A stretch of DNA of 64,000 bases, taken from contig NZ_CP110224.1 of the NCBI RefSeq assembly GCF_026013645.1, positions 434,001 through 498,000 on the forward strand, written 5' to 3'. The stretch's first letter is position 1. Every line of letters begins with the position of its first letter. The notes below the pieces were generated by a model that was not told where the DNA came from, did no database searches, and saw only the letters and a program-made list of their open reading frames with translations. The DNA is from Virgibacillus natechei (GTDB lineage Bacteria > Bacillota > Bacilli > Bacillales > Amphibacillaceae). Positions 1,121 to 26,187 of this stretch are shown here, piece after piece. The position numbers and the translations under genes are program-made.

Positions 1121-2355
1121 GGATTTGAAATAGAACCCATGAATAGAATTGCGTCCGTTTCATCATCCGTGATGGTTATGAAAAATGGGCGATTGACTTC
1201 CATATGAAATGGCTCGTCGATGGGCGCTGAGGTTATCTCCATTTCTACAGATGTAGCTGCAGCCGCTTCTGTTCCTTCTTCATTAACATCAATAAATGTT
1301 TTTTGTTTTACCTGGCTAATCCATAAAGGGTCATCTTCTTCGATCATTTTCGGAAAATTTGCATCTTCATCAAATGCTGACTCCATCCCAAGTTTCTCTA
1401 ACGTTTCATTCAATATGGTCTCGTATTCTAGTTGGAATTTAGGTAGCATAATGGTGCCTTCTTTTGTATCGAACTGGGAGCTCCATGCCGTCCAGTTTTC
1501 CTCCGTGAGCATTGCCTTGAATTCATCTACACTGGAATTCTCCCTTGGAAGGAACACGTTCATACTCATCTCTTCATCACCATAAGGAAGAGTCACTGCT
1601 TGAAAGCTTTCATTTTCCATATAAGCTAAATCTTCGCTTTGTGTCATGAGCGGGACATCTTTTGTTGTGCCGTCGTCCAAATGAAAAGTTCGTTCCTCAG
1701 TCTTATTCTCATCAAATGCATACGTCCAGTCGCCCTTAAAGTAAATAGCGTTGATGAGTATGGCTACTAAGTCAGGATTTAGAGGAGAATCTACAATGTT
1801 GTCAATTTTATCGTTTGTCATATCTGTAACCCAATCATTTATTCTCTCAGCAGACTCATTATCGGTTATATCAATTTCATGAATTTCTGCATTAAAATAG
1901 TCTTTATTATTTTGAGCGAATTCGTCTTGAAAATGAAAAAAATCGTTTAGCCAAATCGAGTTGGCAACATGCAGTTGAAAGTGGTCAGAATCTCTATGAA
2001 GCATGGACATTAAAGAAGCATTCGCTTTATTCCATTCGTCTATATCCATTCCTTCATTCTGCAAAACGTTCGCCATTTCTTCTTTCGTCACACCATCTGC
2101 GCCGTTGTATACCATGGATAATGCCATCAATAAACTAGTAGGAGAAACAAATGAATTACCATTTTCATTCGCTTCAACTTCTGTTATTAATGAAAATCCT
2201 AATGCATTATTGGAGGGGATGATGGACTTATAATCATCTTCGTTAAAATCAGCATCGGTCGACAAACCGAAATCATCTGTATGTTCTTCGTTTGCACAGG
2301 AAACAGCGATTAAGCAAATGCTTACTAAAAGTGAGAGTAGTATTATGTTCTTCAA
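1105..2355 (-). CDS. Lipoprotein serpin (serine protease inhibitor)
   Basis: A 416-residue serpin, a suicide inhibitor of serine (or cysteine) proteases. Residues 1-20 form a lipoprotein signal ending in the lipobox AVSC before ANEE, so the protein should be tethered outside the membrane. The serpin body follows (SPTSLLMALSMVYNGADG, NAIYFKGDW, MNVFLPRE). The reactive-centre loop begins near residue 359 with an inhibitory-type hinge, EEGTEAAAAT. Counting from the hinge Gly as P15 puts P1-P1' near Thr-Ser in ITSAP. The conserved end NRPFFITITDDETDAILFMG is present and the length is normal. The small alanine-rich hinge predicts a working inhibitor. The target protease is unknown; no protease gene adjoins it. 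Confidence 0.93.
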   Translation of the reverse strand: MKNIILLSLLVSICLIAVSCANEEHTDDFGLSTDADFNEDDYKSIIPSNNALGFSLITEVEANENGNSFVSPTSLLMALSMVYNGADGVTKEEMANVLQNEGMDIDEWNKANASLMSMLHRDSDHFQLHVANSIWLNDFFHFQDEFAQNNKDYFNAEIHEIDITDNESAERINDWVTDMTNDKIDNIVDSPLNPDLVAILINAIYFKGDWTYAFDENKTEERTFHLDDGTTKDVPLMTQSEDLAYMENESFQAVTLPYGDEEMSMNVFLPRENSSVDEFKAMLTEENWTAWSSQFDTKEGTIMLPKFQLEYETILNETLEKLGMESAFDEDANFPKMIEEDDPLWISQVKQKTFIDVNEEGTEAAAATSVEMEITSAPIDEPFHMEVNRPFFITITDDETDAILFMGSISNPMQTP

Positions 2356-2580
2356 TGCATAACCAGCTCATTTCTTTGTTTAATTAACTGAATATTTAAT
2401 CAAAATATCATATGTAACCATTTGTGTCAAGGACGCATAATCTCCTTATTTTCATCAAACAATTAAAACAAGGAAAACAGAGTTGTTTTAATCGAAATGA
2501 CTGTGGTAGCAAGTATGTATAAAGCTAGAATCACTATTCATTCATCTTAACACAAAAAATTCACACAAAACATTATAGAC

Positions 2581-2609
2581 TTGAAACTTTACCGTCTGGT
2601 TAGTATAGT
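2581..2609 (+). promoter_or_regulatory. TetR promoter with operator in the spacer
   Basis: TTGAAA (2581-2586) and TATAGT (2604-2609) are separated by 17 bases. The spacer contains ACCGTCTGGTTAGT (2591-2604), a match to the ACCRTCYRGAYGGT-like palindrome that occurs twice upstream of the carnitine genes. This layout fits autorepression by the downstream TetR protein. Confidence 0.7.
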
Positions 2610-2642
2610 TAATATATAAAATTGTTTAAGAGGAGCTTATAA

Positions 2643-3179
2643 ATGGGCCGAAATTCTAGGAAAATAGAAATACTGACTGCTGCATCTAAGGTTGTAAGTG
2701 AAAAGGGTATTTTCAACTTGACATTAGAAGCTGCTGCTGTAGAAGCAGGTATTAGCAAAGGAGGACTACTCTATCATTTCCCCTCTAAAGAAGCTCTAGT
2801 TGAGGGAATGGTTGAGCATTTAACGAATAATTACAGAGAAAAAATTGAATATAATGCAGACATAGACCCAGAGGAAAGAGGGCAATGGCTCCGCGCTTAT
2901 ATCAATGTTACGTTCAATCAAACGTACCAAAACAAGGATATGAATGCTGGATTATTGGCAGCAAAAGCAGTAAATTCTAATCTGCTGGACCCAATGCGAG
3001 AATTATATACAGATTGGCAAAGCGAAATTGAAAATGATGGACTAGACCCTGTTAAAGCGACAATTATACGCTTAGCTGTAGACGGGATTTGGTTATCGGA
3101 ACTATTTGATATTCATCATATTGAAGAAAGTAAAAAGGAAAACATTTATAAAGCACTAATAGATTGGGCCAATGAATAA
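2643..3179 (+). CDS. TetR/AcrR-family regulator, probable controller of the carnitine genes
   Basis: A 178-residue TetR-family repressor. The N-terminal HTH is clear: AAVEAGISKGGLLYHFPSKE at about residues 31-50. A short all-helical ligand domain follows. The ATG is preceded by AGAGGAG at a normal distance. Its promoter carries an operator-like palindrome matching two others ahead of the BKACE gene (3549 and 3585), 0.5 kb downstream on the same strand. A role as ligand-responsive repressor of itself and of carnitine catabolism is an inference from these shared sites. The ligand could be carnitine or a pathway acyl-CoA. Confidence 0.85.
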   Translation: MGRNSRKIEILTAASKVVSEKGIFNLTLEAAAVEAGISKGGLLYHFPSKEALVEGMVEHLTNNYREKIEYNADIDPEERGQWLRAYINVTFNQTYQNKDMNAGLLAAKAVNSNLLDPMRELYTDWQSEIENDGLDPVKATIIRLAVDGIWLSELFDIHHIEESKKENIYKALIDWANE

Positions 3180-11440: not shown

Positions 11441-11596
11441 CGGGTTATTTGATATTATATTAGTACTGGTATATCAATGGAAGTAATTATAAAAATGCTT
11501 CTTTAATTTATAATATATTGGGTAGAATGTTTGCTTCATTTGGAAAAGAAAGTACAATGTAAGAAGCGGGCGCTGATCAAGCTCGTAGTATTTTTT

Positions 11597-11683
11597 GCAG
11601 ATAAGAAAGCATAAAAACCTTCTTACTGCATAAGTGCAACTAAGGCTATGCCATGAAGCTTGGCGATAAGCCAAGTTTACTAA
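11597..11683 (+). mobile_element. 88-bp two-hairpin element, copy 1 (87 bp)
   Basis: First copy of a repeat seen again at 17798 and 25388. Hairpin 1 pairs GCAGATAAGAAAG with CTTCTTACTGC. The conserved linker GCATAAGTGCAACTAAGGC overlaps both hairpins. Hairpin 2 pairs GGCTATGCC with GGCGATAAGCC, and the end reads AAGTTTACTAA. A TTTTTTG flank precedes it, as for the other copies. It lies between the carnitine terminator and the pseudouridine synthase, close to that gene's ribosome site. Confidence 0.8.
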
Positions 11684-17160: not shown

Positions 17161-17182
17161 TATCCTTCATCCTCACTCTCAA

Positions 17183-17237
17183 TTTATCGCAGTTTAACTG
17201 GCAGTAAAACCCCCACTGAATGGAGTTTTACTTTATA
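17183..17237 (-). repeat. Dispersed intergenic repeat, copy C
   Basis: TTTATCGCAGTTTAAC (17183-17198) is followed by GGCAGTAAAACCCCCACTG and TGGAGTTTTACTTTATA. GTAAAACCCC and GGAGTTTTAC form a hairpin. This is the most complete copy and it lies upstream of the GntR start. Confidence 0.65.
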
Positions 17238-17381
17238 CGTATAGTTATAGTATACAAGAAAAAGGGAGAGATTGATATACAATATATTACGTTATGTTTA
17301 TTTGCTTCAAATTGCCGCTTTGAAAGCATTGATCACACGTTTGATTAAAATGTATTTCGTATATAACAGTCTATCATCATA

Positions 17382-17765: not shown

Positions 17766-17797
17766 CATAGTCTATAGTTTCATAAGCCCCGTTTTTG

Positions 17798-17885
17798 GCA
17801 AATGGGAAAGTATAAAAACTTCCCTATTTGCATAAGCGCAACTAAGGCATTCACCGAAATCCGTTGTGAATGCCAAGTTTTCTAA
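17798..17885 (+). mobile_element. 88-bp two-hairpin element, copy 2
   Basis: Hairpin 1 pairs GCAAATGGGAAAG with CTTCCCTATTTGC. The linker is GCATAAGCGCAACTAAGGC. Hairpin 2 is a perfect nine-pair stem, GGCATTCAC/GTGAATGCC, whose sequence differs from the other copies while pairing is kept. It ends AAGTTTTCTAA and the 5' flank is GTTTTTG. Confidence 0.82.
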
Positions 17886-24901: not shown

Positions 24902-25002
24902 TCGAGGGTAGGCGAAGTAGCCAGCTGGTACGAGAGGTTTTTCAGGAAACCAGTAGTGACTTGTACCTGAAATCATGTTACACTTACGTTTGCGATGAGC
25001 TG

Positions 25003-25109
25003 ATTTGTGTAAGACGAAGGATGAGGCAATTCATGTGGATGTGAACACATGGTCCTTCGCCACAAATTTCGTAAAGGCACCTGTACTTAAATGTATAGGT
25101 GTCTTTTTT
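25003..25109 (+). ncRNA. Candidate structured RNA with its own terminator
   Basis: A long hairpin pairs ATTTGTG and CGAAGGA (5' side, about 25003-25021) with TCCTTCG and CACAAAT (about 25052-25067). An inner ATGTG/CACAT stem caps it. A terminator hairpin (25075-25100) and a T-run follow. It lies ahead of the HEPN remnant and deaminase. It may be a small RNA or leader; no known riboswitch class is recognised. Confidence 0.45.
25075..25109 (+). terminator. Rho-independent terminator
   Basis: GGCACCTGTAC pairs with GTATAGGTGTC around a TTAAAT loop, followed by T6 A T5. Confidence 0.8.
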
Positions 25110-25241: not shown

Positions 25242-25734
25242 ATGTCTGAAAGAAAGTCTATGCAGAGTTTAGCTAATTTAGAGAAAGCGCTTGGAAGACT
25301 GGAAGAAGCTCTGAATGAAGACGATAACAATAGTTTGTATATCGATGGCACTATCCAACGTTTTGAATTTACATATGAGCTTTTTTGGCAGTTAAGAAAG
25401 TCTAAAAACTTCCTTACTGCATAAGTGCAACTAAGGCTTTCGCCATAAAGCTTGGCGATAAGCCAAGTTTTCTAAGAAAACGCTAAAAAGATTACTTGAA
25501 GAAGAAGGTGTCGAAGCCAAAACTCCAAGGGAAACATTAAAACAGGCCTATACAATAGATTGGATTCAAAATGAACATACCTGGTTACAAATGCTGCGTG
25601 ATAGAAATGAAACCTCCCATGTATATGATGAAGAAAAGGCAAGAAGTATTTATGAGAATATCGTTGGTTATTTTCCTGAAATGAAGAGGACTTTTATGCT
25701 TTTAAAAGAAAGGTATTTACTGGAGGTCATTGAA
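25242..25734 (+). pseudogene. HI0074-type HEPN protein split by an 88-bp element
   Basis: The N-terminal part (47 codons, MSERKSMQSLANLEKALGRL) and C-terminal part match the nucleotidyltransferase-substrate-binding HEPN family (HI0074, MNT partner; RNase-type toxin). Element copy 3 inserts after the TGG of ELFW, adding a stop and a frameshift. Removing 88 bp restores ELFWKTLKRLLEEEG. The HEPN Rx4H motif is visible as RNETSH in LRDRNETSHVYDEE. The start has GGGAGGAA. No partner nucleotidyltransferase is adjacent. The frame has no stop before the deaminase gene. Confidence 0.85.
25388..25475 (+). mobile_element. 88-bp two-hairpin element, copy 3 (inside the HEPN gene)
   Basis: Hairpin 1 pairs GCAGTTAAGAAAG with CTTCCTTACTGC; the linker is GCATAAGTGCAACTAAGGC. 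Hairpin 2 pairs GGCTTTCGCC with GGCGATAAGCC, and it ends AAGTTTTCTAA. The 5' flank is TTTTTTG, and no target duplication is seen. Boundaries shift by one base (25389-25476) because a G occurs at both junctions. Confidence 0.87.
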
Positions 25735-26187
25735 ATGGATAAATTTATGAAAAGAGCAGTTGAACTTGCTGTAGCAAATGTTCGAGACGGTGGACAGCCG
25801 TTTGGTGCAGTACTTGTGAAAGATAATAATGCTATAGCTGAAGGTGTGAACGAACTGCATGAGACATATGATGTCAGTGGACATGCGGAGCTGCTGGCAA
25901 TTCGACGAGCACAGAAAGAATTGCAAACGAATGATCTATCAGGCTATACCATGTACGCAAGCGGGGAGCCCTGCCCGATGTGTTTAACGGCGATGTACTT
26001 TGCTGGGATTGAAAAGGTTCTTTACTGTGCTTCACTTGAAGATGCGGTTGAAGTGGGGTTAGGGAAGGCGAAACTGATATATGAGGACATGCAAAAGCCG
26101 AAATCAGAACGAGCACTATCAATGATACAGATGCCATTGAATGAAGGGCAAGAAAATCCAATGAAATTATGGGAAGAGCGAAAGTAG
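25735..26187 (+). CDS. Nucleoside deaminase (GuaD/CDA family)
   Basis: A 150-residue zinc-dependent deaminase of the cytidine/guanine deaminase superfamily. The zinc site is VSGHAELLAI (His, with the catalytic Glu) and GEPCPMCLTAM (two Cys). The N-terminal GGQPFGAVLVKDNN is also typical. It is closest to guanine-deaminase-type members by recall. ATG at 25735 has TGGAGGT seven bases upstream and marks the family's usual N-terminus, even though the frame is open further upstream into the HEPN remnant. A bidirectional terminator follows. Confidence 0.88.
   Translation: MDKFMKRAVELAVANVRDGGQPFGAVLVKDNNAIAEGVNELHETYDVSGHAELLAIRRAQKELQTNDLSGYTMYASGEPCPMCLTAMYFAGIEKVLYCASLEDAVEVGLGKAKLIYEDMQKPKSERALSMIQMPLNEGQENPMKLWEERK

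What the first reader, a model, noticed from the sequence alone, without database searches (positions are those of the whole stretch)
25388..25475. 88-bp two-hairpin mobile element caught inside a HEPN gene
Three same-orientation copies (11597-11683, 17798-17885, 25388-25475) share 87-88 bp length, two hairpins, the 19-nt core GCATAAGYGCAACTAAGGC and an AAGTTTWCTAA end. Hairpin arms change sequence between copies but keep pairing (GGCATTCAC/GTGAATGCC versus GGCTTTCGCC/GGCGATAAGCC). Copy 3 breaks the HEPN gene, and removing exactly 88 bp restores ELFWKTLKRLL with no target duplication. All copies follow a T5-6 G flank. Lack of duplication, terminal hairpins and a fixed 5' flank resemble IS200/IS605-derived non-autonomous elements; that link is an inference.
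Basis: partly seen in the sequence, partly recalled or inferred. Interest (0 to 1): 0.72.

Follow-up and report, generated by a model that had tools for sequence, protein, structure and literature searches.

The report
Short hairpin mobile element targeting T-tracts
An 88-base piece of DNA with two hairpins is scattered in dozens of copies through this bacterium and its relatives, where it jumps in next to runs of T on one strand, once breaking a gene; it carries no gene of its own and the enzyme that moves it has not been found.

Summary
Three copies (87, 88, 88 bp) lie at the stated places; a model finds 95 in this genome, and relatives occur in Bacillaceae, Brevibacillus, Paenibacillaceae and Desulfosporosinus. 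Mobility is shown: a relative's homologous HEPN gene is intact and lacks exactly these 88 bases, with no target duplication; three other sites are element-free in relatives. Both hairpins are supported by paired changes. Of 52 copies analysed 46 follow the replication fork, more than genes (72%) or non-coding T-runs (47%). The left flank is a T-tract (about TTTTYTTN, often a terminator tail), and the element's own right end, TTTTCTAA, resembles it; copies also stack head to tail. This is the logic of single-strand, IS200/IS605-like transposition, and I think a trans-acting HUH/Y1-type enzyme most likely. Membership is not shown: no Y1 gene with matching ends was found, this genome's IS200 has other ends, and one relative with at least 101 (older) copies has no recognisable Y1 gene. 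It fits neither REPINs nor TIR-type MITEs and matches no Rfam family. A new family of a known kind, as far as my searches reach; mobiliser unknown.

The parts
11591..11596 (+). T6 tract 5' of copy 1 (insertion target)
   Evidence: Read; relatives G001 and G002 have a T-rich stretch there and no element.
11597..11683 (+). copy 1 of the element (87 bp), intergenic
   Evidence: absent in G001 and G002.
17792..17797 (+). T5G flank of copy 2
17798..17885 (+). copy 2 of the element (88 bp), intergenic; variant with GCAA/TTGC foot
   Evidence: no element there in G001 and G002, but the flank cannot be aligned base by base.
25381..25387 (+). T6G flank of copy 3, inside the HEPN gene
   Evidence: the same bases are in the element-free homologue of G008.
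25388..25475 (+). copy 3 of the element (88 bp), splitting the HEPN gene
25388..25420 (+). hairpin 1 (left end); foot GCAG pairs with CTGC
   Evidence: Paired changes GCAG/CTGC, GTAG/CTAC, GCAA/TTGC: 127 of 189 fully paired, shuffles mean 90, max 101.
25394..25400 (+). AAGAAAG: candidate guide complementary to T-tract and right end (inference)
   Evidence: Sequence reading only; AGAAAG recurs in Desulfosporosinus and Clostridiales copies. Not tested.
25419..25437 (+). 19-nt core GCATAAGYGCAACTAAGGC
25429..25432 (+). AACT, pairs with AGTT 3' of hairpin 2
   Evidence: nearly invariant (154 of 175), double change GACT/AGTC in 1 of 175 (G016 copy L319) and in the longer repeat.
25435..25464 (+). 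hairpin 2
   Evidence: Up to 15 of 43 copies with both sides changed at one pair.
25466..25469 (+). AGTT, partner of AACT
25468..25475 (+). right end TTTTCTAA, resembles the consensus of the left flank
   Evidence: In 75 strong hits of other species the last 8 model bases are TTTTCTAA in 47 and TTTTCTTT in 17; the left flank there is T-rich with C or T at -4 and T at -3 in 73.
25242..25387 (+). 5' piece of the interrupted NTase_sub_bind/HEPN gene
   Evidence: PF08780 E 2.7e-11, profile 1-49.
25476..25734 (+). 3' piece of the interrupted gene
   Evidence: PF08780 E 1.4e-21, profile 46-121.

Best explanation
It is a short, gene-less, non-autonomous mobile element. Shown: it inserts without target duplication (exact joint seen for copy 3), directly 3' of a T-rich tract (often the T-tail of a terminator), mostly in the one orientation that follows the replication fork, so that its hairpin-bearing strand is the lagging-strand template; two hairpins are kept by paired changes; its own 3' end resembles the target motif and further copies are found stacked on it head to tail. 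Inferred: an enzyme acting in trans recognises the hairpins on single-stranded lagging-strand template, cuts 3' of the T-rich motif at the left flank and at the right end, joins the ends in a single-stranded intermediate and pastes it after another T-tract, as IS200/IS605 Y1 (HUH) transposases do. The enzyme's identity is not known.
For: Exact gap for copy 3 against the homologous gene of G008; element-free sites for copy 1 in G001 and G002, for own copy L008 in G001 and G002, also absent in G026, and for L015 in G003, with diverged flanks; one site shared with G002, so copies also descend vertically. Fork co-orientation 46 of 52 copies listed out of 95 (p 1e-8), against 148 of 205 genes (p 0.004) and 303 of 644 non-coding T5+ runs (p 4e-10); listed copies of G002 15 of 17, of G001 9 of 11 (p 0.002 and 0.07); 7 of 10 copies whose two neighbouring ORFs are both opposite still follow the fork. 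T-run of 4 or more within 12 nt upstream in 37 of 52 own copies against 8.6% background, 47 of 75 in other species against 8.6%. Right end similar to flank. Tandems in L134, L062, L140, L157. Paired changes. Recent movement in Natribacillus: identical copies at five, four and two different sites; 12 of 21 held copies have a neighbour 98% or more identical (organism). IS200/IS605 facts (lagging-strand template, guide 5' of the hairpin, flanking tetranucleotide) from passages of PMC6006769.
Against: No Y1 gene with matching ends: eight Y1 hits in this genome, none with the element at its ends; the three full IS200 copies have other ends. G016 has at least 101 model matches and no Y1 hit at E 0.001, one 14-bit hit under the cut-off at E 0.12; its 20 sampled copies look older (median nearest identity 0.90 against 0.925 here) and it is a 30-contig draft. 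Y1 hits occur in 52 of 61 genomes, with or without the element, so presence does not track it. By the passage the guide lies 5' of each hairpin foot; here hairpin 1 starts at the left end itself. Cores of the GGGCT type keep the AACT/AGTT pair only by wobble. 62 of 189 copies do not fully pair the left foot.
Confidence: 0.6

Rival explanations
1. REP/REPIN-like repeat moved by a RAYT (TnpA_REP), a single-copy Y1 relative.
For: RAYT-sized Y1 frames (169, 203, 257 aa) in this genome and frames of 180-273 aa in element-bearing relatives; the core of the longer cousin repeat lies about 1.2 kb from one of them (L179); the G016 subfamily starts with GTAG, the tetranucleotide of canonical REPs (PMC6006769 passages).
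Against: REPINs are inverted REP doublets, and RAYTs have REPs beside them (PMC3116915 passages); here hairpins 1 and 2 differ in sequence, the 88-bp core does not occur (up to 4 mismatches) within the 1.5 kb held on either side of the three RAYT-sized genes L178, L179, L181, the commonest start is GCAG, and G016 has no Y1 hit above cut-off.
Confidence: 0.15
2. RNA-mediated insertion, in the manner of group IIC introns, which attack a DNA stem-loop followed by a T-rich IBS1 and exploit lagging strands.
For: The 45 nt upstream fold better than background (mean -8.6 against -5.0 kcal/mol, p 7e-5); T-rich flank with C or T at -4, fork bias; group IIC target features from PMC10190682 passages.
Against: 88 nt is too short for a group II ribozyme core (established knowledge); no Rfam match overlaps the element in the window or in L004-L006; 62% of the 52 upstream stretches fold no better than -8 kcal/mol, and I see no terminator at the HEPN site (by eye); -1 is a free base. 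Reverse transcriptases of this genome were not searched.
Confidence: 0.12
3. Not a mobile unit but a conserved structured RNA or terminator spread by ordinary duplication.
For: Structure conserved; a longer related repeat contains a match to the Rfam motif Bacillaceae-1.
Against: Exact gap, element-free sites, identical copies at unrelated sites, flank specificity.
Confidence: 0.03
4. Passenger of another single-strand or site-specific machine (IS91/Helitron-like Y2, a replication or repair process, an unknown nuclease).
For: No Y1 partner; at least 101 model matches in G016 without a Y1 hit above cut-off.
Against: No transposase among the 25 widest ORF clusters around 204 held stretches (113 of the genome collection, 61 own, 30 of relatives and own). 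Y2 and other families were not searched genome-wide.
Confidence: 0.1

Closest known systems
IS200/IS605 insertion sequences and gene-less derivatives
   Same: No target duplication, hairpins, target left at the 5' flank, lagging-strand-template orientation.
   Different: No transposase with matching ends found; hairpin 1 sits directly at the left end; a 19-nt core joins the two hairpins.
REPIN / REP elements with RAYT
   Same: Short, two hairpins, many copies, presumed trans mobilisation.
   Different: Hairpins are not an inverted doublet; GCAG is the commonest start, GTAG a subfamily; no RAYT beside the element in the loci held; T-tract target.
bcr1 of Bacillus cereus and other bacterial MITEs (RUP, NEMIS, EFAR)
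   Same: Short interspersed non-coding mobile repeats of bacteria, several in Firmicutes.
   Different: By a passage of PMC3733652 that group has 15-30 bp terminal inverted repeats; here the tips of copy 3 show none, and there is no target duplication. The bcr1 sequence was not compared.
Group IIC introns
   Same: Insertion after stem-loop plus T-rich sequence, use of lagging strands (PMC10190682 passages).
   Different: 88 nt, no intron match, no protein; stem-loop not constant.
Bacillaceae-1 RNA (Rfam RF01690)
   Same: Matches inside a longer repeat of this genome that shares the GCATAAGTGCRACTAAG core and an AAGTCTTC right part.
   Different: The 88-bp element itself does not match it.
Unnamed stem-loop families of Bacillus halodurans and clostridia (Bhal-1, Clop-1, Clot-1; PMC2267715)
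   Same: Similar size (74-93 bp) and copy number in a table passage.
   Different: Sequences not seen, so identity with the present family is neither shown nor excluded.

Membership tests
IS200/IS605-derived element | insertion without target duplication | tested here: met
   Exact 88-base gap against G008; one site of this precision.
IS200/IS605-derived element | hairpins towards both ends kept by selection | tested here: met
IS200/IS605-derived element | fixed target motif at the left flank, related cleavage motif at the right end | tested here: met
   (sequence level; cleavage not tested).
IS200/IS605-derived element | lagging-strand-template orientation | tested here: met
   46 of 52, above genes and T-runs.
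IS200/IS605-derived element | guide sequence 5' of each hairpin foot | tested here: inconclusive
   AACT/AGTT is nearly invariant, one double change in 175 plus the longer repeat; the left guide is only inferred.
IS200/IS605-derived element | Y1 transposase element with the same ends | tested here: not met
   Own IS200 ends differ; no Y1 with the element at its ends in loci held; G016 without Y1 hit above cut-off. Genomes of Natribacillus and others were not searched.
REPIN | two REPs in inverted orientation | tested here: not met
   Hairpins 1 and 2 differ in sequence.
REPIN | linkage to a RAYT gene | tested here: inconclusive
   No 88-bp core within 1.5 kb of the three RAYT-sized genes, but the longer cousin's core lies about 1.2 kb from L179; no RAYT among 10193 ORFs of the loci held around copies.
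TIR-type MITE | terminal inverted repeats and target duplication | tested here: not met
   No duplication; tips of copy 3 are not inverted repeats.
group II intron | intron RNA core / domain V | tested here: not met
   No Rfam match overlapping the element.

The most novel reading that the evidence does not exclude
A family kept across Bacillota whose mover is not a known Y1 transposase: a fork-coupled machine that reads T-tracts through a guide inside the element (AAGAAAG, complementary to both the TTTTYT flank and the right end), with a modular loop that can take up further hairpin units and a kinship to the larger repeat that contains a Bacillaceae-1 match.
Probability: 0.22. Interest if true: 0.82.

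Novelty: new variant of a known kind. Interest (0 to 1): 0.58.

Why it matters
It is an abundant mobile element family (95 model matches, about one per 40 kb here) that matches no Rfam family and that I did not find described in ten paper searches (open-licence papers only; unnamed families in PMC2267715 could not be compared). Its orientation follows fork direction, its insertion sites share a readable motif that resembles its own end, and Natribacillus halophilus holds identical copies at different sites, so the search for the enzyme and a test of single-strand transposition outside the known IS200/IS605 and REPIN cases are directly possible.

Tried and rejected
Rfam: no match overlapping the element, at gathering score in the window or up to E 10 in L004-L006. 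Own IS200 as source: ends differ. Autonomous copy with separated ends: lone left or right ends found, none bracketing a transposase that I could see. Gene enrichment near copies: among the 25 widest ORF clusters only general families such as ABC transporters. Phages and plasmids: no match for copy 3 at E 1e-5; the one viral-contig hit has the core letters without the hairpins (read). Core letters in main texts of papers: 0; the other paper searches listed no title or abstract start that describes it; most subscription papers are not held. Further empty-site queries: L323 gave one usable site (L015), L325 none (L026 is absent in G002 but its flank is not alignable), L324 one empty (L008) and one shared site (L009). 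G-U against A-C mismatches as a sign of the folding strand: looked at by eye, no preference, not counted.

Full report
What is there. Three copies of 87, 88 and 88 bp lie on the + strand at 11597-11683, 17798-17885 and 25388-25475. Each has a left hairpin whose foot is the left end, the core GCATAAGYGCAACTAAGGC, a second hairpin and the end AAGTTTWCTAA. The core is not expected by chance in the window. The window is G000:C1:434001-498000 of a 3.87-Mb genome whose contig begins with a dnaA-like gene (read, not scanned). The core has 62 hits there with up to two mismatches and none for the reversed control. A covariance model from 43 own copies has 95 matches here at E 0.001, 101 in G016, 35 in G002, 27 in G001, 22 in G021 and 13 in G003, and matches in 12 of 41 genomes (candidates are capped at 108 per genome, so the two highest are lower bounds). 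That scan demanded the exact core, so it cannot show how conserved the core is. An exact 17-nt core was found in 9 of 61 relatives including this genome.

Structure. On 43 own copies with 26 pairs, 89.9% of cells pair (84.0% in shuffles, at most 45% when slid), and 63 cells have both sides changed against 24.3 in shuffles, with slid controls at 13 or less; the number of further pair types does not exceed shuffles. The left foot covaries over the held copies: GCAG/CTGC 93, GTAG/CTAC 13, GCAA/TTGC 7; 127 of 189 readable copies (of 214 distinct) are fully paired, 62 are not; shuffles average 90 and reach 101. AACT before hairpin 2 pairs with AGTT behind it; the double change GACT/AGTC occurs in one of 175 copies and in the longer repeat, so this pair has little power. 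At least five own stretches (L022, L025, L041, L052, L056) carry an extra block of about 60 nt inside the loop of hairpin 2.

It moves. In relative G008 a homologous HEPN gene, 81% identical and at another genomic place, is intact (150 aa, PF08780, followed by a nucleotidyltransferase gene). The alignment shows a gap of exactly the 88 bases, with CTTTTTTG before and GAAAAC after, and no duplication. Copy 1 is absent in G001 and G002 at a T-rich stretch. Own copy L008 is absent in G001 and G002, where the terminator before it is kept, and in G026; L015 is absent in G003, where the terminator with its T-tail is kept and the other side cannot be aligned. The exact joint is therefore shown only for copy 3. 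Copy 2 is absent in G001 and G002, but its flank cannot be aligned. L009 is shared at one site with G002, so copies are also inherited. In G001 a copy stands at the end of a truncated HEPN gene, without a T-tract before it. Natribacillus has identical copies at five, four and two different sites; a neighbour at 98% or more is found for 12 of 21 copies there, 6 of 58 here and 0 of 20 sampled in G016.

Where it lands. Of the 95 own matches 52 were listed with coordinates and analysed. T is at -3 in 94%, -6 in 86%, -2 and -7 in 76%; -1 is G in 51%. A T-run of four or more lies in the last 12 bases in 37 of 52 against 8.6% of random places. In other species, the first 75 of 120 model hits give T at -3 in 73, and a T-run of four or more in 47, against 8.6%. 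The 45 bases upstream fold better than background (-8.6 against -5.0 kcal/mol, p 7e-5; below -8 in 38% against 16%), and several are clear terminators, but I see none at the HEPN site. So the T-tract is the constant, the terminator a frequent way of supplying it (inference).

Two clues to mechanism. First, strand: with the terminus set at the midpoint, 46 of 52 copies follow the fork. ORFs of 150 aa or more in the held stretches follow it in 148 of 205, non-coding T5+ runs in 303 of 644, so neither gene direction nor T-run supply accounts for it (p 0.004 and 4e-10). The listed copies of G002 (17 of 35) give 15 of 17, those of G001 (11 of 27) 9 of 11, the latter not significant alone. My ORF caller is crude; 7 of the 10 copies with both neighbours opposite still follow the fork. 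In this orientation the hairpin strand is the lagging-strand template. Second, ends: the right end inside the element (TTTTCTAA in 47 of 75, TTTTCTTT in 17 of 75) resembles the flank outside the left end (T-rich, T or C at -4, T at -3, then TG or similar). One cutter of a TTTTYTNN motif would serve both (inference). It also explains the tandems: end-to-start in L062, L140 and L157, and with two bases between model hits in the four-copy array of L134.

What it works like and whether it belongs. This is how IS200/IS605 elements work: single-stranded lagging-strand template, hairpins at the ends, a flanking target tetranucleotide (passages of PMC6006769). Membership is not shown. Eight Y1 hits occur in this genome. 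None has the element at its ends; one IS200 copy (L175) has an element about 1.25 kb away, and the RAYT-sized gene in L179 has the longer repeat's core about 1.2 kb away. The three full IS200 copies have other ends. Among 10193 ORFs of 45 aa or more in loci held around copies, only an edge piece of that same IS200 matched a Y1 profile that I built. Y1 hits occur in 52 of 61 genomes, with or without the element. G016, with at least 101 matches, has none at E 0.001 and only a 14-bit hit at E 0.12; loss after past activity or a draft gap would explain this, and its copies do look older. It does not fit REPINs: those are inverted REP doublets near a RAYT (passages of PMC3116915). Group IIC introns are the most thought-provoking rival, since they attack a stem-loop followed by a T-rich IBS1 and exploit lagging strands (passages of PMC10190682); but nothing of an intron is in 88 bases, and the stem-loop is not constant here.

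A longer cousin. Four own loci (L048, L049, L053, L055), one in L179 and one in G016 (L319) belong to a repeat of several hundred bases (the G016 one shorter, 63-79 bases aligned) that shares GCATAAGTGCRACTAAG and an AAGTCTTCTT right part. L053 matches the Rfam motif Bacillaceae-1 above gathering score (40.8 bits); L049, L179 and L048 match below it; an Oceanobacillus stretch near element copies also matches (L083, 41.3 bits). PMC2864571 lists the motif in a table for Bacillaceae (passage). Whether the short element derives from the long one is open.

Verdict. A real, abundant, recently mobile element family, not described in the sources I could search; its behaviour is IS200/IS605-like, its mover unknown.

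Noticed in passing
window 24992-25103: BsrF small RNA (RF01411, 68.4 bits) just upstream of the broken HEPN gene.
   Followed up: no
L048, L049, L053, L055, L179, L319: Longer non-coding repeat that shares the core; L053 contains a Bacillaceae-1 match above gathering score; several tandem units in L179.
   Followed up: partly
window 25735-26187: In the window the HEPN remnant runs into a deaminase gene; the nucleotidyltransferase gene present beside the intact G008 homologue is not there.
   Followed up: partly
L220 (G001) 1861-1947: A copy of the element stands at the joint of a truncated, inverted HEPN locus in a relative, without a T-tract before it.
   Followed up: partly
window about 17179-17239: A further short repeat with many copies in relative G026.
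   Followed up: no
L175 about 1930-3100: Tandem repeat of about 163 bp beside an IS200 copy at about G000:C1:3835.8-3836.9 kb (spacing of repeated frames).
   Followed up: no
L070, L148, L159, L170: Copies whose left hairpin region has gained a GGGGCT...GCCCCACC...TAAAGA block, also seen in the longer repeat.
   Followed up: partly
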